Shown here: in pieces, positions 128 through 17,406 of the stretch
How positions within the stretch are numbered: the first letter of the stretch is position 1
How the letters are laid out: every line of letters begins with the position of its first letter
From: a virus
IMG/VR virus record: IMGVR_UViG_3300036851_000441
Coordinates: 1 to 39,254 of that record
DNA: 39,254 nucleotides
Direction: 5' to 3' (one strand)
Notes under the pieces: generated by a model
Told to the model about the DNA's origin: nothing
Seen by the model: only the letters and a program-made list of their open reading frames with translations
The model's database searches: none
Program-made: the position numbers and the translations under genes

Positions 128-636
128 GCTTTCGCGTGCTGGTCATCGAAGAGCTCGGTGACGTAGGCGACCTCGTCGCGGATCACGACCGCCACCGCGA
201 ACCGGTACCAGCCGGGATCCAGAATGATCGAGCGATGGCTCGGGCTCGCCATGAAACTGGCGTGTAACTGCTCGGGCCATCGGGTCGCGCTCGTGCCGAT
301 CTGCCCGACGTTCTCCCCGATCGAGGATCCCGGTGGCCCGCTGTCGGCCAGGGCCTCGTCGCTGGAATGAAAGATCTTGCCGGCGTCCGCCATCGCGATG
401 GTGTGCGCCGTCGCTCGGTCGAACAAGTCCGCGGAAACGACGAGACGCCGCAAGCCGCGCTCACTACGTTCGCCGGCGATGAACCGCTCGAACGTCTGCG
501 CCGCCGCAACGTCAAGACGTGACCGGGAAGCGGCGATCGTGGATCCGCGGGGCTCGGGCGCCCTCGTTGTTGCAAGCGTCGCGGCAACGAGGGCCGCGAT
601 CGCAAAGCCGGTGACGACGCGGCGGCCAAGCTTCAT
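58..636 (-). CDS. CAP/SCP-domain secreted protein (YkwD/PR-1-like)
   Basis: 192 aa from an ATG that overlaps the previous stop as ATGA. Residues 8-23 form a hydrophobic N-terminal segment (signal peptide or anchor). The rest matches the CAP superfamily: H90 in an FHSS stretch, E108 in a GENVG box and H134 in SPSHRSIIL are the usual cavity His/Glu/His set. Two cysteines sit near the C-terminus. Bacterial CAP proteins are secreted or wall-associated, and their activity is poorly defined. Its place between the collagen-like protein and the endolysin suggests a role at the host envelope during lysis or particle release, which is inference. An upstream in-frame start at 663 would overlap the preceding gene by 31 bases and is less likely. 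Confidence 0.85.
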
Positions 637-1229
637 GGGCAAAATGGGTCGGGCAAGGTGCATGGCGTCGGGCTCGGCGATGGTGCCGGGGAGCCGGCCG
701 GCCCCGGTGGCCCGGTTGGCCCGGGTTCTCCTTGCGGGCCTTGCGGCCCGGTTGGCCCGGGTTCTCCTTGCGGGCCCGGTTGCCCGTCCCGACCGTCTCT
801 GCCGTCCCGACCTTTGGTGCCCGGCGACCCGGCGGGTCCTTGCGGCCCGGCGACGGTCAGATCGGCGCTGGTTGCAGCTTCGAGTTCCGTCAGGCGCTTG
901 AGCACTTGGGCCACGGCGTTCGGGTCCCCGATCACGGCGGCCAGCTGCCCGAACAGCACTTGCCGCTCGGACTCGAGCGCGGCGATACGAGCCAGCGCCT
1001 GCGTCTTCGCTTTGTTGGCTTTGACGAGCGCCGCTCGGTCCAGCACCACGAGAAATGCGAATAAAGCTGCCAGTACCGAGACCAGCGCGAGAGCGAGCGT
1101 TACCCGGCTGATTTGACGTTCGTGCGTCGCAAGATGAGCGATCGCCTCGACCTTTGACCCGACGTCAGGCTCGTCGAGCGCTTCCAGCGCGTCGACGTCG
1201 GGCCGCGCTCTTCGCCTTCTTTTGCGCAC
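633..1229 (-). CDS. Membrane-anchored collagen-like protein
   Basis: 198 aa, GTG start preceded by GGAGG. A basic N-terminus is followed by one transmembrane segment (about residues 43-63), a heptad-like coiled coil (about 66-120) and then eighteen uninterrupted Gly-X-Y triplets (residues 128-181), rich in GPQ, GEP, GRD and GPT. The tail is Pro/Ser-rich with two cysteines (residues 191 and 197). Gly-X-Y stretches in phages normally form trimeric collagen-like stalks in tail fibres, with a neighbouring coiled coil as trimerisation seed. The transmembrane segment is unusual for a virion fibre and could mean insertion in the host membrane or burial in the tail tip. It overlaps the preceding gene by 65 bases and the CAP gene by 4. 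A structural or accessory role is inferred from position. Confidence 0.8.
709..776 (-). repeat. Tandem direct repeat in the collagen-like gene
   Basis: A 32-base stretch (709-740) recurs exactly at 745-776, a 36-base period equal to four Gly-X-Y triplets. It encodes the [12 protein letters not shown] type triplets of the collagen stalk. Such repeats change copy number readily, so stalk length may vary between relatives. Confidence 0.85.
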
Positions 1230-3612: not shown

Positions 3613-4140
3613 TTACGGTCCGTTCGTCGTGACCTTGACGACTCCACTTACGCCGCCGGCGGGCACCGTCCAGCGGATCTCTTGGTGCTCGGGCGTCGCC
3701 ACGTCATCGTCCGGGATGATCTGTCGATCGGGATCCGGATCGGGACGGCCGGCAAGCGCATCGACTCGGTGCCACTGCACGATCCCACCAGCGAGCGCGT
3801 TGAGAAGAATCTGGCCGGCGTACGTCGCCTGCGTCGCGCCGAAACCATGCCCGACGGCGCGTGATTCCCAACCCTCGCGACCGTAATTCGGCCGGAGGTA
3901 CCAGATGTGCGGCACGGGCGTGTTCGCTGAGACGTCGCCCCAGTAGCCGTACCCGTGCGCCTCACGCGCGTCGATCAGCGAGACGCCGACGTTCTCATAA
4001 ACGTAGCCGTACCCCTCGAGGCGATCACCCGATGCCGGACCGGCGCTCTCGTCGACGTACCCATAAGATTCGCGGGCATCGACGACAAGGACCCCGACGT
4101 TTTCGTCGACGTAGCCGTATGCCTCGCGTGCATCGGCCAT
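3613..4140 (-). CDS. Tail-region protein with four 18-residue repeats
   Basis: 175 aa. The ATG at 4140 overlaps the previous stop as TGATG. Residues 3-74 are four tandem 18-residue units, each with a DAREAYGYVDENVG-like core; tyrosines and the YGYV step are conserved and the fourth unit is degenerate. The remainder is Trp/Tyr-rich (HIWYLRPNYGREGWE) and ends in a beta-rich stretch. No known family is recognised. Its place between two tail proteins suggests a virion tail-tip or connector component. The Tyr-rich repeats may form a beta-solenoid or a fibre attachment. The longer reading from 4224 lies inside the neighbouring gene and is rejected. Confidence 0.75.
   Translation of the reverse strand: MADAREAYGYVDENVGVLVVDARESYGYVDESAGPASGDRLEGYGYVYENVGVSLIDAREAHGYGYWGDVSANTPVPHIWYLRPNYGREGWESRAVGHGFGATQATYAGQILLNALAGGIVQWHRVDALAGRPDPDPDRQIIPDDDVATPEHQEIRWTVPAGGVSGVVKVTTNGP
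3919..4134 (-). repeat. Four tandem 54-base repeats
   Basis: Four consecutive units with an exact 18-codon period encode DAREAYGYV, DARESYGYV, DRLEGYGYV and DAREAHGYG respectively. No indel breaks the period, so the repeat is constrained at protein level. Confidence 0.85.
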
Positions 4141-5096
4141 CACGTCCAGCTTCCGGCAGCGGCAACGATCAGAGCAGTCCACAGGCCGAACACCGCGTTC
4201 GCCGGCGTCGTGCGACGGACCCAAAGGTTCGCCGAAAGCGCACCGGGAGCGAGGTTGCCGATGTTGATGTTGGCAAAGAAATTCACGCCGTCGGTGGAGA
4301 ACAGATACTGACCCGGAACGCTCGGCGCGGTGTCGGTCAACGCCCCGATGCTGACGTTGACGTTGTTCGCCGTCAGCGCGGCCGCGGTGTTCTTCACGCG
4401 AAACTTGCGATCGGTGCTCGAGGACCGCGGCACATCGCCAAAGTCGAAGAACGCGCCGCCGGCTTCGAAGTCTCCGATCGGCTCCCCGAACGCGGCGCTG
4501 GAGGGGCGCCAGAGTTTGAGAAAGCTCGCTTGGCCGGCCGTGTAATTGCCGTAGACGTGAAGCGCTTTGAAGTTCAGCGGGTACGCACCGCCGGAAAACT
4601 CCCAGCGCAGCGCCTTGACGCCGGTAGCAGAGATGCTCTGGATGGCCGTGCGGTAGTTCGGTGACGTGACGCCGGACCGCGCCCAGTTGGCAATGATGGT
4701 GACCCAGGTTCCGTCGACGCCGTTGGTTGTGTCGGCCGATTTCTTCAAAGCGTCCAGGCTAAAGCCGTTATCGCCCGCCGCGAAATAGGCCGCGATGTCG
4801 CGCAGCTGCGGAAAGATCATGGCGAGCTTGCTGTTGGACGTCACGAACGCCGTGGCGTCACTCTCATCGTTCATGTTTGCTTTTTCGACGCCGGTCAGCT
4901 CCGTGATCACGCTGCCCGCGGTGATGTCGACGACGGCCGTTCCGTCACGGTGATACGCCATCCGGTGCTCGGGCACGTCGACGTAGTTACCGGCACCACC
5001 GGAGATTGCGAAGACCGACGAGCCGTCGGGAAAGACCCAACGATTGCCGACGAGGATCGGATCGGTGATCAAGCGAGGCGTCCAGAGCTCATGCAC
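4140..5096 (-). CDS. Tail protein carrying the scaffold-shared N-terminal motif
   Basis: 318 aa from a GTG at 5096; a GTG at 5120 would overlap the upstream gene by 32 bases. Residues 12-35 read DPILVG-NRWVF-PDGSS-VFAISGGA, matching 18 of 24 positions in the scaffold protein (17311-17382). The middle (about 80-205) resembles beta-rich host-binding or carbohydrate-module folds. The end has an FRVKNTAA...VSIGAL region that looks like an Ig-like or jelly-roll domain followed by a phrase (PGQYLFSTDGVNF) typical of tail proteins. It is probably a structural tail component. The repeated N-terminus may be a docking tag. No specific family is recognised. Confidence 0.75.
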   Translation of the reverse strand: MHELWTPRLITDPILVGNRWVFPDGSSVFAISGGAGNYVDVPEHRMAYHRDGTAVVDITAGSVITELTGVEKANMNDESDATAFVTSNSKLAMIFPQLRDIAAYFAAGDNGFSLDALKKSADTTNGVDGTWVTIIANWARSGVTSPNYRTAIQSISATGVKALRWEFSGGAYPLNFKALHVYGNYTAGQASFLKLWRPSSAAFGEPIGDFEAGGAFFDFGDVPRSSSTDRKFRVKNTAAALTANNVNVSIGALTDTAPSVPGQYLFSTDGVNFFANINIGNLAPGALSANLWVRRTTPANAVFGLWTALIVAAAGSWT

Positions 5097-5340
5097 GGCG
5101 GCCGCCTTTTCGTGAACCACGTTTCACGTTTCGTGGTTTGCGCTTCTGCTCGTCAACGCGCGCAGCCAGGTGCTCGTCCCACAGATCCTCGGGCCACCAG
5201 GTGCTCTCCTCGCGGTCCAAAAAGAAACGAGCCCCGTCTTCGGGGCACGTCCAATCGTTGGATTCGGCGACGTCGATACCTGGCGGCCAGCATTGGCCAG
5301 GCTCGTGCGTCGGATGCTCTGCCGCTTTCTTTTTGGCCAT
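5089..5340 (-). CDS. Small acidic/Trp-rich tail-region protein
   Basis: 83 aa starting ATG at 5340 (MAKKKAAEHP). It holds two cysteines in GQCWPPG and DWTCPEDGARFF, a run of tryptophans (STWWPEDLWDEHL), and a basic C-terminal tail (KRGSRKGGRR). It resembles small conserved proteins near siphophage tail genes, but no function is known. The 3' end overlaps the next gene by 8 bases. Cys and Trp patterning suggests a compact, perhaps metal-bound or disulphide-held fold. Coding is supported by position, spacing and the shape of the protein. Confidence 0.7.
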   Translation of the reverse strand: MAKKKAAEHPTHEPGQCWPPGIDVAESNDWTCPEDGARFFLDREESTWWPEDLWDEHLAARVDEQKRKPRNVKRGSRKGGRRA

Positions 5341-10039: not shown

Positions 10040-10365
10040 TTGCCCCTCCTCTCCTCTCGCACTTCCAGCCCCGGAATTCCCGAGGGCGCCGTTCCCATGA
10101 ACGGGCGTGGTCCGTGCTGCGACGTCCCGTACTCCCAGAAATGCGAGATCCAGTCGTTCGAGTTGACGCGCGCGATTTGGCCGTCCTTGGTGAGCCCGTG
10201 CGTCGTGTCGATCGCGTCGGCGATGCGCTCGAAAGCCGCGCTCTCTTGCGCGCGACTCGCGATGATCTTGGCGACGCCCTCAGCGGCGATCCCCATCGAG
10301 GGAAGCGCCGCAAACTCGCGCGTGAAGTTCGGAGCGAACTCGATCTTGATCTCAGCCTTGGCCAT
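10036..10365 (-). CDS. HK97 gp10-like minor tail/connector protein
   Basis: 109 aa from an ATG overlapping the preceding stop as TGATG. The order helix, NDWISHFWEYGTSQHGPRPFM and a short beta end matches HK97-gp10-like proteins: the EYGT..HGPRPF phrase is the family signature. Members take part in joining head and tail. It lies with the other connector genes between capsid and tail tube. The long upstream extension to 10719 is Arg-rich and out of phase with the neighbours and is rejected. Confidence 0.8.
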   Translation of the reverse strand: MAKAEIKIEFAPNFTREFAALPSMGIAAEGVAKIIASRAQESAAFERIADAIDTTHGLTKDGQIARVNSNDWISHFWEYGTSQHGPRPFMGTAPSGIPGLEVREERRGK

Positions 10366-10706
10366 CACGCCTCGATTCGCCGGAGCCGGACTTCGATGTG
10401 ATGGATCTCGTCGGGTTCCTGCGGCCGGCGTGCGCGCAGTGGCTCGGCGATGATCTCGTACGTCTTGCCGTCGACCTCGATGCGGTCCGTCGCCTCCACG
10501 ACGGCGTCGCCGGGCAGAAACAACACGTCTTGGATCACTTCGGTTTGCCGGTCGCCCCGCAGCTCGGTCGCGGTCGTCTGCGTCAGCCATCCGTCGTACT
10601 GGCGCCGGCTCAAGGCGCTCTCGTCCGGCGTGTTGTACTCGTCGAGCTCGCCGAGCACCGGAGAGACGATGACGACGGGGATCTGCATCAAGTCTTCGAT
10701 CGCCAT
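10365..10706 (-). CDS. Probable head-tail adaptor/head closure protein
   Basis: 113 aa, ATG overlapping the previous stop (TGATG). Short beta-barrel pattern: IPVVIVSPVLGELDEYNTP, DGWLTQTTATELRG, DVLFLPGDAVVEATDRIEVDGKTYEI, ending in VRLRRIEA. The phrase 'L..GD.V...D.I.VDGKTYEI' is typical of SPP1 gp16-like head-closure proteins. Order next to the gp10-like gene supports this. Confidence 0.72.
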   Translation of the reverse strand: MAIEDLMQIPVVIVSPVLGELDEYNTPDESALSRRQYDGWLTQTTATELRGDRQTEVIQDVLFLPGDAVVEATDRIEVDGKTYEIIAEPLRARRPQEPDEIHHIEVRLRRIEA

Positions 10707-11044
10707 CAGGAAACGTCACTCAGGACCGCGATGACGTCGAAGCGGTCGTTGGGAACCGAGAGTGTCTTGCCGTCGTCGAACTGGATCTCCCACTCGGATT
10801 CGTACCAACCCGGGATGTCCGTGTCGCCGGCAGCCCAGTCGTACCGCACCATCCCGTCATTGCCGGGCGGATTGACGATCTGTGCCGCTGCGTCGACGCG
10901 GAGCGAGCCACCGAAGGCACGTCGCATCTTGAACCGCACGGTCAGTCCCTCGAGATCGATCGGGGCGCCGTTGTTGAGCAGCGTCGTCTGCAGCGCCGGT
11001 AACCGGTCGCCGCGTTTGATGAAGAAGTCGGGACGCAGGCTCAC
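10706..11044 (-). CDS. BppU N-terminal-like beta protein
   Basis: 112 aa from GTG at 11044, with GAGGAG 5 bases upstream; a start at 11101 would overlap the preceding gene by 47 bases. The run IKRGDRLPALQTTLLNNGAP, LEGLTVRFKMRRA, GMVRYDWAAGDTDIPGWYESEW and the Asp/Gly turns match the N-terminal module of baseplate upper proteins (BppU-like). Such modules attach fibres or repeats to virions. It directly follows the long repeat protein, and could anchor it. Confidence 0.68.
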   Translation of the reverse strand: MSLRPDFFIKRGDRLPALQTTLLNNGAPIDLEGLTVRFKMRRAFGGSLRVDAAAQIVNPPGNDGMVRYDWAAGDTDIPGWYESEWEIQFDDGKTLSVPNDRFDVIAVLSDVS

Positions 11045-11054
11045 GCGAGCTCCT

Positions 11055-12629
11055 CTACGAAAGCGGCGCCGGCGCCGCGGCAGATTGGCGCCGTCCGTCA
11101 TCGAGCACGACGTCGGACGTGCCGAAAGGTGGCAGCGCGGACGTGATGACGCGCGCGACCTCCGAATCGACGGTTCCGACGAGCAACGTGGTCGGCGGTT
11201 CGGGAACTTGTGGGACGATCGCTCGTGCCTGGTCGATCTCGAGGGCGATTCCCAAAACTCTCGCGATCGCGTGCAACCAGCCTGCCGCGGTATCGGACTC
11301 GATCGCGCCGGCGAGCTCTTGGCGCTTCGTCCAGGTGATCGGCGCCGAGATCTCGACCGACGTTGCCGTTCCGATCGGGATGTTCAAAGCGCCGGAGAAC
11401 GAGCCGGCCAAGTCGATCTCGACCGCGGCGGCCAACGACCGAGTCTTCGTCCATGCGAACGAGCCGGCGAGGTCGTTCTCGAGAGCAGCCTCGAGGGTGC
11501 GTCCCTTCGCGGAAATGATCGCGGCCGCGACGTCGGACTCGATCGCTTCGACGAGCGTGAAGGTCTTGTGGGCGCTCAGCTGCGGCGCGGCATCGAGCTC
11601 CGTTGCCGGCGCAACGACCAGTCGCTTCGAGGCTGAGACCGCGGGCGCCGTATCGAGCTCGCCGGCAACGCCGATCGGCCTCGCCGCGCCGATCGAGAAA
11701 GCGCCGGCGCTGTCGACTTCCGTAGGCAGTCCGAGCGTAGCGCTCCGAACGACGTCGACCGGTTCGGCGATATCGCTTTCTTCGCCACGGCCGATCGCGC
11801 GAGTCTTCGATGCGGAAATGCTCTGCGCGCTGTCGGATTCAACCGCCGCAGTAAGCGCCTTGCTCGTTGCATGCCCGATCGCGGTGGCGGTGTCGGACTC
11901 CACCGCTGCGGCAATCGCCTTAACGCGGCTGGCCGAGATCCCCAGAGCAGCATCGGATTCAACTGCGAGTGCGATGCTCCGGGCTTTCGCCCGGGCCAAC
12001 GCGGTCGCAGAGTCCGACTCAGCTGCGATCCCCAGGGACCGAGATTTTCGAGCGGCCGCTGCGAGAGCCGAATCCGTTTCCGGCCCTACGCCGATCGATT
12101 TGCTTTTTGTGCGTCCGGCGGCGCTGGCCGAATCCGTCTCGGCGCCGGTCGCCCAGCTCGGAGGCGTGTAGGTGACGGTGATCGACACGAAGTCGACCGA
12201 GCCCGTCAGAGCGTTTGTCGTGTTGCCCTTCGTGCAACGAACGCGCGCGACGACGCGACCCGCGGTCTTGAGATCTGCCAGGCTCGGAATCGTTCCGAAC
12301 AAGAACGTCGAGACCGCCTCGGCGATCGTCGTCTTCACGGTCTCGGCGCTGGAGTCCGCGACGTTGTTGTTGCGTCCCTGGATTCCCAGCGTCGCGCCGG
12401 TGACGGCCGCGTCCATCTTCCAATCGATGTTCAGCTGGACCGCGGTGATGACCGATCCCGGCGGAATGTTCAGCGCCGGAAAGCCGAAGTCGCCGTTGAC
12501 GGTCGCGTTCTTGCCGGGCACGGCCGTCGCGTAGACGCCGTTGGTAACGGTGCCGTACGCGTTCGCGGGGTTCGTCCAGCCCGTCGTAACGATCGTGTGC
12601 CGATCGGCTGCAACGGTGAGGCTAGCCAC
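11055..12629 (-). CDS. Repeat-rich structural protein (sixteen 20-residue units)
   Basis: 524 aa, GTG start with GGAGG upstream. Residues 1-161 are a beta-rich head (PPGSVITAVQLNIDWKMD, VDFVSITVTYTPP) reminiscent of carbohydrate-binding or jelly-roll modules. Residues 162-481 are exactly sixteen tandem 20-residue units around A-V-E-S-D-x-A...A-S-K-x-R-A-I-x-x-A; the acidic ExD step and small Ala/Gly residues recur. Residues 482-524 are a short ending. The period suggests a solenoid or fibre. Position among connector genes suggests a head fibre or decoration, but it could also be a tail fibre. No family is recognised. Confidence 0.75.
   Translation of the reverse strand: MASLTVAADRHTIVTTGWTNPANAYGTVTNGVYATAVPGKNATVNGDFGFPALNIPPGSVITAVQLNIDWKMDAAVTGATLGIQGRNNNVADSSAETVKTTIAEAVSTFLFGTIPSLADLKTAGRVVARVRCTKGNTTNALTGSVDFVSITVTYTPPSWATGAETDSASAAGRTKSKSIGVGPETDSALAAAARKSRSLGIAAESDSATALARAKARSIALAVESDAALGISASRVKAIAAAVESDTATAIGHATSKALTAAVESDSAQSISASKTRAIGRGEESDIAEPVDVVRSATLGLPTEVDSAGAFSIGAARPIGVAGELDTAPAVSASKRLVVAPATELDAAPQLSAHKTFTLVEAIESDVAAAIISAKGRTLEAALENDLAGSFAWTKTRSLAAAVEIDLAGSFSGALNIPIGTATSVEISAPITWTKRQELAGAIESDTAAGWLHAIARVLGIALEIDQARAIVPQVPEPPTTLLVGTVDSEVARVITSALPPFGTSDVVLDDGRRQSAAAPAPLS
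11187..12146 (-). repeat. Sixteen tandem 60-base repeats
   Basis: The 960 bases encode sixteen 20-codon units without a single length change. The DNA is diverged between units although the protein pattern (ExDxA with a later K/R and Ala) is kept. That points to old duplications under selection for an exact period, not to recent slippage. Confidence 0.85.
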
Positions 12630-12873: not shown

Positions 12874-13302
12874 TCAGGCCGCGCGATAGAAGACGTTCAC
12901 CAGCGCGGTGACGTCCGAGCCGTCGGTAGCTACGGCGAAGTCGTGACCGGTCAGCGGCACGCGCGTGCCGTCGGTTCCACCTTCGTCGTAGAACGTGATC
13001 GCTTTGACGAGGTTGTTGTTCACGCCGCCGCCGGCCGCGGTGTAGGTCTGATCGGGGATGTCCAGATCGACGCGGTCGTTCGTTTGGTCGACCGTCAGCG
13101 TCGCGGTGATCGCGGTCTTGCGCGCGTAGTTCGTGAAGTTGGCCTCGGTGTTGCCCACCAGCACGTCGGTGACCGTCGTCCGGTCGCGCAATGCTGCGTC
13201 GGATTCGGCGACCTTGAGAAGCAGCACGCCGATCTTCGTGGCGTCGTCGCGGACCTTCTCCGCGGCTGCGCCCTTCGCAATGTTGAAAACGATATCCGCC
13301 AC
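12874..13302 (-). CDS. Structural protein, conserved in phage connector regions
   Basis: 142 aa, GTG start after GGAGGG. Helical start (IAKGAAAEKVRDDATKIGVLLLKVAE), then a beta-rich part (LTVDQTNDRVDLDIPDQTYTAA and TGHDFAVATDGSDVTALV). The shape suits a head-decoration or tail-tube-associated protein. No motif for catalysis is seen. Function is inferred only from position between head and tail genes. Confidence 0.65.
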   Translation of the reverse strand: MADIVFNIAKGAAAEKVRDDATKIGVLLLKVAESDAALRDRTTVTDVLVGNTEANFTNYARKTAITATLTVDQTNDRVDLDIPDQTYTAAGGGVNNNLVKAITFYDEGGTDGTRVPLTGHDFAVATDGSDVTALVNVFYRAA

Positions 13303-13305
13303 GGC

Positions 13306-13719
13306 TCAGCCCTCCAGCGCGACGCGGTATTCGTGCGTGGAACGAAACCCGGTCGGCTCGTCGTCGTCTTCGATCCGGAAACCACGCGGGACAGGACCTT
13401 CGGTGATCCGGTAGACGACGTCGATCTCTTCGCCCTCGCGCACCAGGTGCAGCACGATCTGGTCGCCGGGAAGACTGAGCGTCTGCGGCGACGCGAACCG
13501 GAACTCGCCGCCGGGATCGGGATGAACCTTGTATTTCAGCGGCTTTCCGGTGAACTCCATCCAGCCCTCGGCGATGGCTTGGTGCACGTACTGATCTGAA
13601 AACACGTGTGTGGGCGGGAGCGCGGAGTGCAGCTCAACGTGGCGCAAAGGCCACGGTTCGCCTTCGGCCGGCGCCGTGCCGCTCTTGTCGGCGATCTTGT
13701 GCAACTCGAGTACGGGCAT
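13306..13719 (-). CDS. Connector-region protein of unknown function
   Basis: 137 aa from the ATG at 13719 (AAGGAG 9 bases before). It opens MPVLELHKIADKSGTAPAEG and has a helix LPPTHVFSDQYVHQAIAEGW followed by beta strands FRFASPQTLSLPGDQIVLHLVREG. No known family is recognised. It sits between a head-tail connector protein and structural genes; a virion role is inferred. An upstream reading from 13770 overlaps the preceding gene and lacks a ribosome site. Confidence 0.6.
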   Translation of the reverse strand: MPVLELHKIADKSGTAPAEGEPWPLRHVELHSALPPTHVFSDQYVHQAIAEGWMEFTGKPLKYKVHPDPGGEFRFASPQTLSLPGDQIVLHLVREGEEIDVVYRITEGPVPRGFRIEDDDEPTGFRSTHEYRVALEG

Positions 13720-13745
13720 CGATCGTTTCTCCTTGCTCGAGGCGA

Positions 13746-14582
13746 TCAGGAAGCCGTTCCCGATCCCCATCTCAAGAACGCGAGCTGATCTTTCTCGAAC
13801 GCGGTGAGCTCGTTGCCGCCGGCGCGGAACTGCGCGTTGTAGCCGGCGATCGTCTCACCAATGAGATTGGCCGGGTTGCGGTACATCCGTGCGGCGACCG
13901 TCAGCGTCGCACCGCGTACCGAATCCGGGATCTTGGCGAATCCGTGGCTGTAGGTGACGAGGACCTCAGTGCCGGGATAGGCGGAGAACGCTCCGAGGAG
14001 CTTGCCGCCCCGGTTCCACGCGTAGGCGTCCGTGTCGAGAACGATCTCATCGATCTCGACGGCCGAGACGTTGAAGACGGGTCGCTGCGGCAACCACAGC
14101 GGCTCACCCGGCGAGGCGACCAGCGTGACGGTGTCGTCGAGAACTTGCCGGATCGCTTGGCCCGACCAGCCGACGATCGCGCCGAAGGCGAGATCGATCA
14201 ACAGCTGCGCGTGCGGGTCGTCGTCGTTGATCCGCTTCTTGACGATGAGGCCGAGCTCGCTCGGGCGCGGATAGCCGGCGGATCCGAAGATGATCGAGCC
14301 CGCCGGCGTGACCTCGAAGAACGAATCCGCGGCGATCGGCGCGTCGTCGACCGTCGCCGTCCAGTGGTCCCGCCACACGCCGATCGGCGCCGCGGCGTCG
14401 ACGGCGTAATCGTAGTGATACAGGCCGAGGCCATCGCGAACGGGCGCCACCGGCGCCAGAACTTGGACTTGTTGCGGATCGAAAATCGCGATGAGTGGAT
14501 CGACCGGGTCGACCAGGGCCCCGGCACCATTGGTAAATGTCGCCGGGCGCGTGATGACGCCGCCGAGACCGACCCGGTCCAC
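13746..14582 (-). CDS. Head-tail connector protein
   Basis: 278 aa. The GTG has no Shine-Dalgarno of its own but lies five bases after the stop of a 35-aa gene, so translation by re-initiation is likely. N-terminal beta domain (GVITRPATFTNGAG, YHYDYAVDAAAP...HWTATV), then a C-terminal helical part with AFSAYPGTEVLVTYSHGFAKIPDSVRGA, VAARMYRNPANLIGETIAG and LTAFEKDQLAFLRW. The helical half is typical of gp6-like connector proteins that sit under the portal. Fusion of a beta domain with a connector domain is not unusual in this group. Confidence 0.75.
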   Translation of the reverse strand: MDRVGLGGVITRPATFTNGAGALVDPVDPLIAIFDPQQVQVLAPVAPVRDGLGLYHYDYAVDAAAPIGVWRDHWTATVDDAPIAADSFFEVTPAGSIIFGSAGYPRPSELGLIVKKRINDDDPHAQLLIDLAFGAIVGWSGQAIRQVLDDTVTLVASPGEPLWLPQRPVFNVSAVEIDEIVLDTDAYAWNRGGKLLGAFSAYPGTEVLVTYSHGFAKIPDSVRGATLTVAARMYRNPANLIGETIAGYNAQFRAGGNELTAFEKDQLAFLRWGSGTAS

Positions 14583-15483: not shown

Positions 15484-16557
15484 TTACGCGTTCAGCACGC
15501 CGCGCAGACGCGCCGCGCCCTTGCCGAAGACCGCCATGCCGATGTATGCCTCGATGCGGATCCGCGACGACGGCTTGGACTCGAGCTGGTCGAAGATGTC
15601 GACCGCGATCGGATCCCCGTCGTCCTTCGGCGAGTTGAACAACCCCATGACGCCGGGGATGTTCTCCGCGTCGGACCACTTCACCGCGTAGATCGACGAT
15701 GCGTTCGTCGCGGTGCCCTGAGTCTCGGTGAAGGGGATGATGTCGGTTCCGTCGCCCTTCTGGCCGATATCCAGCATTGGGATCCCGTTGTAGAACTCGA
15801 CCTTGCGGCCGAACTCGTCCCGCGTCGACTCGTAGTAGCCGAGCCGGCGCGCACTGGCGGCCATCTTCGTGCGAATGGCCTTGTTCATGTAGAGCGCATC
15901 GGGCGCTCCGTCGACGCGACCGAGCGCCTCGTCGAGGGCGTCCAGGAACGCGTGGCCGCCGGCGACGGGTCCGAGCCCGTTTGCCGCGGCGTCGACGACT
16001 TGGTTGCCCGTGAGACGCTTCTTGAGACCGTCGAAGCTGTTCGCATCCACGGCGACGTCGCCGTTGACGAACGTGTCCTGGTACTTGCGGACGGCCGCCT
16101 TGATCTTCAGACGCAGCTGCGTTTCGCGCTGGTCGTTCAGATTCGAACGGGTGCGCTGGATGAACCGGTCGACGTCGGCGTCCCCACCGAGGATCACCAA
16201 CGACTCCGTCTTCTGCGACACGACGCCCGTCGACTCGGCGAACGAAGAGTTGACGGCTCGGAACTCCACGCCCGGCAACGTCGTCTCTTCGTTGTACGCG
16301 AACGCGTTGCCTTCGATCTCCTCGAGCGGGACCTGATCCAGCACCGCCGACTCGAGGATGAACGTTTCGATGACGCCTTGCTGCAGATCGTCTTGCGACA
16401 ACACTGCCGCTTGCGCCAAGGTCACCGCGCCGAGCTGATCGGCGAGGATCCGGTTCCAAGCGCGGCTGAGGCGCGCCCGCATGCTGCGCTCACGCGCAAG
16501 CACACCGGGAAGCGTCACGATCCGCGGCTTGGGGGGAAGGAAAGCCTTAATTTCCAT
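15484..16557 (-). CDS. Major capsid protein (HK97 fold)
   Basis: 357 aa; ATG with GGAGGAG 4 bases upstream, fitting strong expression. N-terminal helix (RERSMRARLSRAWNRILADQ), then a beta/alpha body: VPLEEIEGNAFAYNEET, AVRKYQDTFVNGDVAV, a 'MNKAIRTKMAASAR' helix and a late strand IRIEAYIGMAVFGKGAARL, the usual signature of phage major capsid proteins (P domain with spine helix, then E-loop). It follows the scaffold gene. A protease gene is not seen in the cluster, so maturation may be protease-free or use a fold not recognised here. Confidence 0.9.
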   Translation of the reverse strand: MEIKAFLPPKPRIVTLPGVLARERSMRARLSRAWNRILADQLGAVTLAQAAVLSQDDLQQGVIETFILESAVLDQVPLEEIEGNAFAYNEETTLPGVEFRAVNSSFAESTGVVSQKTESLVILGGDADVDRFIQRTRSNLNDQRETQLRLKIKAAVRKYQDTFVNGDVAVDANSFDGLKKRLTGNQVVDAAANGLGPVAGGHAFLDALDEALGRVDGAPDALYMNKAIRTKMAASARRLGYYESTRDEFGRKVEFYNGIPMLDIGQKGDGTDIIPFTETQGTATNASSIYAVKWSDAENIPGVMGLFNSPKDDGDPIAVDIFDQLESKPSSRIRIEAYIGMAVFGKGAARLRGVLNA

Positions 16558-16596: not shown

Positions 16597-17406
16597 TTAT
16601 TTGTCTTTGAATGCGCGGTCGAGCGCGCGGCGCACGCGATCCGGACCGGGCTTGATCTCTTCGTTGTCCTTGCTTTTGCCACCTCGAGCGCCTTGATCGA
16701 CCTTGCCACGCGTCTTTTTCGTCGTGGACTTGCCGCCGTCGCCGTTGGTTTCGGCGGCCAGATAGGGCTTCTTCTCGAGGAGCTCCTCGATCGCTTCGTC
16801 CATCGCGGACAGCGTCGATTTCTTGAAGTCGCCGTCATCGTCGACCTCGAATTCGTCGAGATCGATCAAGCGAACGGCGTCTTCGGGATCGGCGAGCTTG
16901 GTCGCAGCGCGCGAACGCAGCTCTGCCTTCACCAGCCGGCTGTTTGCGCGGGCCAAGATCTCGTCGCGAGCTTTCTTCTCGGCCTCGGCGCGGATCTCCT
17001 CGACGTCGACCTCTGGTTCCTTGTCGTCGTCTTTGGGCGCCGGCTTCTTCTTTGCACGCTTCGCCTTGCGCTCGAGCTCGGCGACGCGTTCCTCGGCGGC
17101 TTTGCGTGCCCGTTCTGCAGCTCGTTCACGCTTTTCGGCTTCGCGCCGTGCCGTGCGCTCGGCGATCAGAGCTCTCTTGCCCTTGGCGCCGAGCTTGTCG
17201 TCGTCCTCGTCGGGCTTCTTCTTGTTCTTCTTCGAGCCCGCATCGTCGTCATCATCGTCGTCATCGTCATCATCGTCGTCGAGGTCGTCGTCATCATCGT
17301 CATCGGCGGGCGCGCCGCCGGAGACTGCAAAAAACGACGTGCCGTCGGCGAAGATCCAACGTGGTCCGACGAGAATCGGATCGTCGAGAACGAGATCGGT
17401 TCGCAT
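16597..17406 (-). CDS. Scaffold/capsid assembly protein with Asp tract
   Basis: 269 aa, ATG after AGGAG. Residues 9-32 carry the DPILVG...RW-F..DG-S-FA-SGGA motif shared with the tail protein at 4140. Residues 35-55 are almost all Asp (seven, one Leu, then thirteen), and a Lys-rich linker follows. Residues about 80-130 are a charged coiled coil (RTARREAEKRERAAERARKAAEERV). Then ILARANSRLVKAELRSRAATKL and a Lys/Arg C-terminus. Coiled-coil middle and basic C-terminal end before the capsid gene are typical of scaffolds. An N-terminal tag and polyAsp run are not. Confidence 0.8.
   Translation of the reverse strand: MRTDLVLDDPILVGPRWIFADGTSFFAVSGGAPADDDDDDDLDDDDDDDDDDDDDAGSKKNKKKPDEDDDKLGAKGKRALIAERTARREAEKRERAAERARKAAEERVAELERKAKRAKKKPAPKDDDKEPEVDVEEIRAEAEKKARDEILARANSRLVKAELRSRAATKLADPEDAVRLIDLDEFEVDDDGDFKKSTLSAMDEAIEELLEKKPYLAAETNGDGGKSTTKKTRGKVDQGARGGKSKDNEEIKPGPDRVRRALDRAFKDK
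17242..17304 (-). repeat. Poly-aspartate coding tract
   Basis: Twenty-one codons, all but one Asp, made of mixed GAT and GAC triplets (trinucleotide repeat, minus strand). Codon mixture keeps the frame stable. It lies inside the scaffold gene between the shared motif and the coiled coil. Confidence 0.85.

What the first reader, a model, noticed from the sequence alone, without database searches (positions are those of the whole stretch)
11187..12146. Sixteen 20-residue units with strict period
A 320-residue array with no length change and a conserved ExDxA step is fused to a beta-rich head in the connector region. It is followed by a BppU-like module. The array may be a new type of head fibre or solenoid.
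Basis: partly seen in the sequence, partly recalled or inferred. Interest (0 to 1): 0.65.

Follow-up and report, generated by a model that had tools for sequence, protein, structure and literature searches.

The report
Portable phage fibre-stalk repeat protein
A phage gene carries sixteen 20-amino-acid repeats that look like a stalk on the virus particle, and the same stalk, almost always with one conserved partner gene, turns up in hundreds of uncultured phages but in only a handful of cultured ones, with no described function found.

Summary
The array is real, on the minus strand: gene 11055-12629, 524 aa, sixteen units of exactly 20 residues at 11193-12152; 15 of 16 carry ExDxA. Synonymous sites are near saturation, so the units are old and held by protein-level selection. 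It is not unique. The same repeat (consensus GQATETDTAQAITxxKxRAV) is in about 106 of the first 120 uncultured viral contig stretches scanned, with up to about 41 units, and matches PHROG 14065 (unknown function; Streptomyces phage Hiyaa gp13). New here: near-reciprocal linkage with the conserved neighbour 12874-13302 (PHROG 26662), 58/62 one way and 46/52 the other. N-terminal domains vary and are sometimes lectin-like; the fusion partners found, including a tail terminator, sit at the array's C-terminus; the gene often lies immediately before the head-tail adaptor gene; one virus has a second copy in a tail-region protein. Best explanation: a virion stalk anchored by its C-terminus at the neck or head, presenting a domain outward. 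AlphaFold2 predicts a regular two-strand-per-unit beta structure, but AF2 over-predicts solenoids on repeats and the conserved Glu/Asp columns are a warning. No structure or virion proteomics was found. New variant of a known kind.

The parts
11055..12629 (-). Array protein gene, 524 aa, GTG start
   Evidence: high coding score; PHROG 14065 E=3e-18; no Pfam family
12156..12629 (-). N-terminal domain, residues 1-158, probably a beta-sandwich (weak evidence)
   Evidence: 26% identity over 151 aa to the pre-array domain of L013, pairwise E=2e-5 in a one-sequence search; not modelled by AF2
11193..12152 (-). Sixteen 20-residue units, 15 with ExDxA
   Evidence: AF2 pLDDT mostly 70-88 over residues 161-340 with 8-residue strands every 10 residues
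11055..11192 (-). Short C-terminal segment (45 aa), possible virion-proximal end
   Evidence: Position; in relatives the same end carries fused virion domains
12874..13302 (-). Conserved partner gene (142 aa, PHROG 26662, unknown function)
   Evidence: PHROG E=9e-20; 35-52% identity to homologs from 11 other phage contigs; linkage 58/62 and 46/52
10706..11101 (-). BppU_N-like protein (131 aa), the gene after the array; start codon uncertain (overlaps the array gene by 47 nt as called)
   Evidence: Pfam PF10651 23.4 bits vs cutoff 23.1; homologs at +1 of 7 array genes
13306..13770 (-). Upstream gene (154 aa), homologs upstream of other arrays
   Evidence: 14 homologs, 13 of them upstream of arrays at -3 to -11
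13746..14582 (-). Head-tail adaptor (Ad1)
   Evidence: phrog_442 E=3e-24; homologs in 27 array loci, 19 of them within 1.5 kb downstream of the array
10365..10706 (-). Head closure protein Hc1
   Evidence: phrog_501 E=4e-13
15484..16557 (-). Major capsid protein, anchor used to find relatives
   Evidence: phrog_212 E=4e-80; 18 relatives

Best explanation
The gene encodes a virion stalk (fibre shaft). The ExDxA units form a regular beta-rich rod; the N-terminal domain is the outward, exchangeable binding or decorating end; the C-terminal end is virion-proximal, at the neck or head next to the head-tail adaptor. The conserved partner (12874-13302) is probably its adaptor or assembly factor, because the two are inherited together in phages whose capsid genes differ. 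Shown by sequence: the array, the family, the linkage, the variable N-terminal parts, the C-terminal fusions, the gene order. Predicted only: beta rod. Inferred: presence in virions, surface exposure, polarity, oligomeric state, ligand binding.
For: Gene order: +1 genes match head-tail adaptor families (phrog_442 in 11, phrog_40 in 10 of 77 scanned), and +2/+3 genes match Neck1 (phrog_5 in 9) and Hc1 (phrog_25 in 6); Hiyaa-type Ad1 lies immediately downstream in 12/12 loci and window-type in 15/27; the same order is annotated in the cultured Hiyaavirus phages, where two of the three records opened call the array gene a minor tail protein. Fusion: L138 array joined to a tail terminator/connector (phrog_2595 E=1e-26, PF12691 E=1e-11). 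In L013 a second array, preceded by a domain distantly like the window's, sits in a 903-aa protein behind the tape-measure-like gene. N-termini: Laminin_G_3 in four and CBM_4_9 in one of ten relatives scanned. Linkage to the partner: 58/62 array loci with at least 2.5 kb upstream, 46/52 partner-selected loci (32/38 after removing contigs already found by the array), against 1/18 MCP-selected loci, the one that has both. AF2: 8-residue strands every 10 residues.
Against: No virion proteomics or structure. The partner has no known fold or function. Gene position varies: in the window Ad1 lies upstream of the array, and in L013 one copy is in a tail-region protein. The window's N-terminal domain is not a recognised lectin. 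The MuF-like look of the L011 C-terminal domain was not confirmed. AF2 has a known beta-solenoid bias on repeats (PMC11795689).
Confidence: 0.62

Rival explanations
1. The array is mainly a flexible spacer or disordered linker; the beta rod is an AlphaFold2 artefact of repeats.
For: AF2 gives confident false beta-solenoids on repeats, including a 20-residue one with stacked Glu (PMC11795689); the units have few large hydrophobics and two nearly invariant acidic columns; no significant solved-structure match.
Against: Adjacent units in the window share only about 33% identity, and the paper suggests the bias may matter only for near-perfect repeats; hydrophobic residues hold at positions 12 and 20 across 1108 units; long in-phase runs (26 units in L024) suggest a length constraint.
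Confidence: 0.22
2. It is a tail-tip adhesin (receptor-binding fibre) whose gene happens to lie in the connector block.
For: The L013 second array lies behind the tape-measure-like gene; Pam4 has its partner homolog downstream of the tape measure and baseplate genes and a degenerate period-18 stretch nearby; two Hiyaavirus records call the gene 'minor tail protein'; lectin-like N-termini in relatives.
Against: The informative neighbours are mostly adaptor, closure and neck genes, not tail-tip genes; the clearest fusion is to a tail terminator at the neck end.
Confidence: 0.28
3. It is a non-virion protein (assembly chaperone, or a decoy released on lysis).
For: Co-inheritance with a small partner also fits chaperone pairs; no proteomics.
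Against: Fusions to a tail terminator and to a tail-region protein; position inside the structural gene block.
Confidence: 0.08

Closest known systems
PHROG 14065 / Streptomyces phage Hiyaa gp13 (annotated 'minor tail protein')
   Same: Same repeat family (window E=3e-18; Hiyaa 2e-254), same block between capsid and connector genes, same partner gene directly before it (gp12)
   Different: Hiyaa is 1110 aa, its units mostly lack ExDxA and are less regular (lag-20 autocorrelation about 0.2), its N-terminal part differs; the adaptor follows it, whereas in the window the adaptor precedes
Phage fibres in general (tail fibres; capsid or head fibres such as phi29 gp8.5; from memory)
   Same: Repetitive shaft with an exchangeable globular end, in the virion gene block
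   Different: Here the fusion partners found sit at the C-terminus of the array, which suggests reversed polarity relative to classical N-anchored tail fibres; repeat sequence matches no solved structure
Two-sided beta-solenoids and 20-residue beta-hairpin repeats such as choline-binding repeats (from memory)
   Same: 20-residue period, two strands per unit in the AF2 model
   Different: No Pfam match; few aromatic residues; best PDB fold match E=0.9
Other repeat proteins in the same slot of capsid relatives (L243, L256, L257)
   Same: Same genomic slot downstream of a homologous major capsid protein, repeats after or without a globular domain
   Different: Different repeat motifs (GTVTPVG-, GVGTLTAAG-, GSAIGVAAG-type), and no PHROG 26662 partner

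Membership tests
PHROG 14065 | Profile match | tested here: met
   E=3e-18, best stretch residues 283-471 against profile positions 665-851 of 1152
PHROG 14065 | Same N-terminal domain as Hiyaa gp13 | tested here: not met
   The best match covers only repeats, not the window head; same repeat family, full architecture not shared
ExDxA-array family (defined here) | At least 3 in-phase 20-residue units with ExDxA | tested here: met
   11 triple matches in the window; local three-unit HMM E=1.9e-82; shuffled ORFs give 0 hits
ExDxA-array family (defined here) | PHROG 26662 partner gene nearby | tested here: met
   12874-13302, local HMM E=5.5e-48, PHROG E=9e-20
BppU_N family (downstream gene) | PF10651 above gathering score | tested here: met
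   23.4 vs 23.1 bits, marginal; a separate gene
Head or capsid fibre | Located on the capsid of virions | not testable with these tools
   Needs virion imaging or proteomics; gene position only suggests it
Beta-solenoid | Supported solenoid coil | tested here: inconclusive
   AF2 regular strands, pLDDT mostly 70-88, but known AF2 bias and no significant PDB fold match
Lectin-like (LamG/CBM) head | Pfam match in the N-terminal domain | tested here: not met
   No Pfam match for the window protein; met in 5 of 10 relatives

The most novel reading that the evidence does not exclude
A portable two-gene virion module, PHROG 26662 adaptor plus a C-terminally anchored ExDxA beta-rod stalk with interchangeable outward domains, that phages with unrelated capsids mount at the neck or head and sometimes at the tail: a fibre class with reversed polarity and an undescribed shaft fold, common in uncultured phages and almost missing from cultured ones.
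Probability: 0.35. Interest if true: 0.68.

Novelty: new variant of a known kind. Interest (0 to 1): 0.5.

Why it matters
It would give a working hypothesis and a partner gene to a repeat family now filed as 'unknown function' in many viral contigs, name a module for display on phage necks or heads, and make it testable in cultured Streptomyces phages. It also points to a class of virion protein that culture collections barely sample (6 of 50,697 phage records carry the partner, against 344 contig stretches in one IMG/VR scan).

Tried and rejected
tblastn of the array protein, its head and a relative's array against cultured phages found nothing or only chance-level hits, probably through low-complexity masking; the linked gene found them instead. 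The search for related loci with the single protein failed; a degenerate 60-nt-period DNA pattern worked. In genome contigs that pattern is mostly chance or other repeats; about a dozen of the listed hits are real, and PHROG 14065 is rare in one bacterial phylum sample (3 of 297 genomes including the query's own). Chance periodicity rejected; recent DNA duplication rejected. The partner's sequence and fold searches gave nothing. A MuF minor-head identity for the L011/L076 C-terminal domain, suggested by a CxxC...CxC motif remembered from MuF proteins, was not confirmed. Two rows of my first partner alignment (L072, L172) were not homologs and were removed. Strain-level change of repeat number could not be shown: close pairs have equal lengths or are the same contig. 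Literature: no paper on this repeat found in the open library.

Full report
What is there. The window is a 39,254-bp uncultured virus record of a siphophage-like, probably temperate phage: terminase, portal, protease, scaffold, capsid, connector, major tail protein, tape measure and integrase genes are recognisable. The finding is the minus-strand gene 11055-12629 (524 aa). Residues 160-479 are sixteen units of exactly 20 residues; 15 carry ExDxA. The lag-20 signal is 0.331 against a shuffle maximum of 0.19, and the triple DNA pattern occurs 11 times against 0 expected. Units differ in DNA (third-position identity 0.37, expectation 0.32) while positions 1 and 2 are kept (0.46 and 0.51, expectations 0.33 and 0.29). 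So the repeat is old and maintained as protein.

The family. Over 1108 units the consensus is G-Q-A-T-E-T-D-T-A-Q-A-I-T-x-x-K-x-R-A-V (E, D and A are fixed by the selection). Most steps are 20 residues (648), fewer 21 (68), 22 (55) and 18 (29). Arrays span roughly 3 to 41 units, median 12, so sixteen is ordinary. The window protein matches PHROG 14065 best through its repeats; the best-known member is Hiyaa gp13. No Pfam family describes the repeat.

The partner gene. The gene 12874-13302 (PHROG 26662, unknown function) is 35-52% identical to homologs from 11 other contigs. Of 62 array-selected viral loci with at least 2.5 kb held upstream, 58 contain it. Selecting by the partner instead, 46 of 52 loci with at least 2.5 kb downstream contain an array, 43 of them downstream on the same strand. 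Fourteen of those contigs had also come in through the array (shared contig names, and L091/L309); without them it is 32 of 38. Among 18 loci selected by capsid homology, one has the partner and the same one has the array. A Fisher test of 46/52 against 1/18 gives p = 2e-10, though contigs are not fully independent and held lengths differ. Shuffled proteins give no array hits. In cultured phages the partner occurs in six records, five Streptomyces phage records and cyanophage Pam4. In the three Hiyaavirus records I opened it is followed at once by a large gene that in Hiyaa, Keanu and Galactica has a 20- or 40-residue periodicity; the local array HMM is significant for Hiyaa and Keanu only.

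Context and fusions. Scanned +1 genes match head-tail adaptor families phrog_442 (11) and phrog_40 (10) of 77; +2/+3 genes match Neck1 and head closure families. By local profiles, Hiyaa-type adaptors lie immediately downstream in 12 of 12 loci and window-type adaptors in 15 of 27, with 7 upstream as in the window. N-terminal parts vary: Laminin_G_3 in four and CBM_4_9 in one of ten scanned relatives, others unrecognised or almost absent. In a capsid relative (L242, 58% capsid identity) the corresponding place holds the array with an N-terminal sequence that looks unlike the window's (not formally compared) and fewer units. Others in that capsid family (L243, L256, L257) hold different repeat proteins there, so the slot itself seems to take exchangeable repeat proteins. 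Fusions are at the C-terminal side: L138 to a tail terminator/connector; L013 to a large unassigned domain in the tail region; L011/L076 to a domain that is a separate downstream gene in L061. This suggests that the C-terminus faces the virion and the N-terminal domain faces out. That polarity is inference.

Structure. AF2 with 45 aligned rows gives 8-residue strands separated by 2-residue turns from about residue 164 to 358, mean pLDDT per ten residues 75-88 from about 161 to 320 and lower after; the head and C-terminus are not modelled. There is no significant PDB fold match; weak matches are mostly beta-helices; the best viral matches are uncharacterised phage proteins, the best at E about 1e-3. 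AF2 produces confident but unrealistic beta-solenoids for repeats, including stacked Glu in a 20-residue repeat (PMC11795689), so the coil type is not settled. If strands were antiparallel with turns at positions 10-11 and 20-1, Glu5 would face Lys16 across strands, which would neutralise the acid column; in a parallel coil it would stack on itself. I could not inspect coordinates, so this is a hypothesis for test.

Mechanism. Most likely a stalk: C-terminal end on the virion near the neck or head, rod of ExDxA units, outward N-terminal domain that in some relatives is a sugar-binding fold; the partner as adaptor or assembly factor. Rivals: tail-tip adhesin, flexible spacer, non-virion protein. 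The location is the weakest step.

Novelty. The repeat is already in databases as unknown function; I found no description of it in the open literature searched (subscription papers are not covered). The linkage, the domain exchange and the C-terminal fusions are, as far as these searches go, new. I file it as a new variant of a known kind, phage fibre or stalk proteins, and not as a proven head fibre or solenoid.

Noticed in passing
window 16597-17406 (-) and 4140-5120 (-): The head scaffold protein and an unrelated 326-aa protein of the tail-gene end share a 32-residue N-terminal stretch (DPILVGxRWxFxDGxSxFAxSGG; 59% identity, pairwise E=1e-10). Possibly a common targeting or docking peptide.
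   Followed up: partly
window 633-1229 (-), repeat 699-786: Collagen-like Gly-X-Y run ([36 protein letters not shown]...) in a 198-aa reading frame that also has a hydrophobic, transmembrane-like stretch.
   Followed up: no
L243, L256, L257 downstream of the capsid gene: The same genomic slot in capsid relatives holds other repeat proteins (GTVTPVG-, GVGTLTAAG-, GSAIGVAAG-type), suggesting an exchangeable repeat-protein slot.
   Followed up: partly
L013 1-1008 and 8456-11167: One virus carries two array proteins, one ending at the head-tail adaptor gene and one in a 903-aa tail-region protein.
   Followed up: yes
L011 5264-6442 and L061 4419-5159: A C-terminal domain with a CxxC...CxC motif is fused to the array in L011/L076 and separate, immediately downstream, in L061; unidentified.
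   Followed up: partly
C-termini of array proteins, e.g. L036, L102, L028, L172, L023: Short C-terminal segments often show roughly ten-residue repeats of their own (AEQRLYLITAEQRAYLI...; GWSTGRVETGWSTGRLEV).
   Followed up: no
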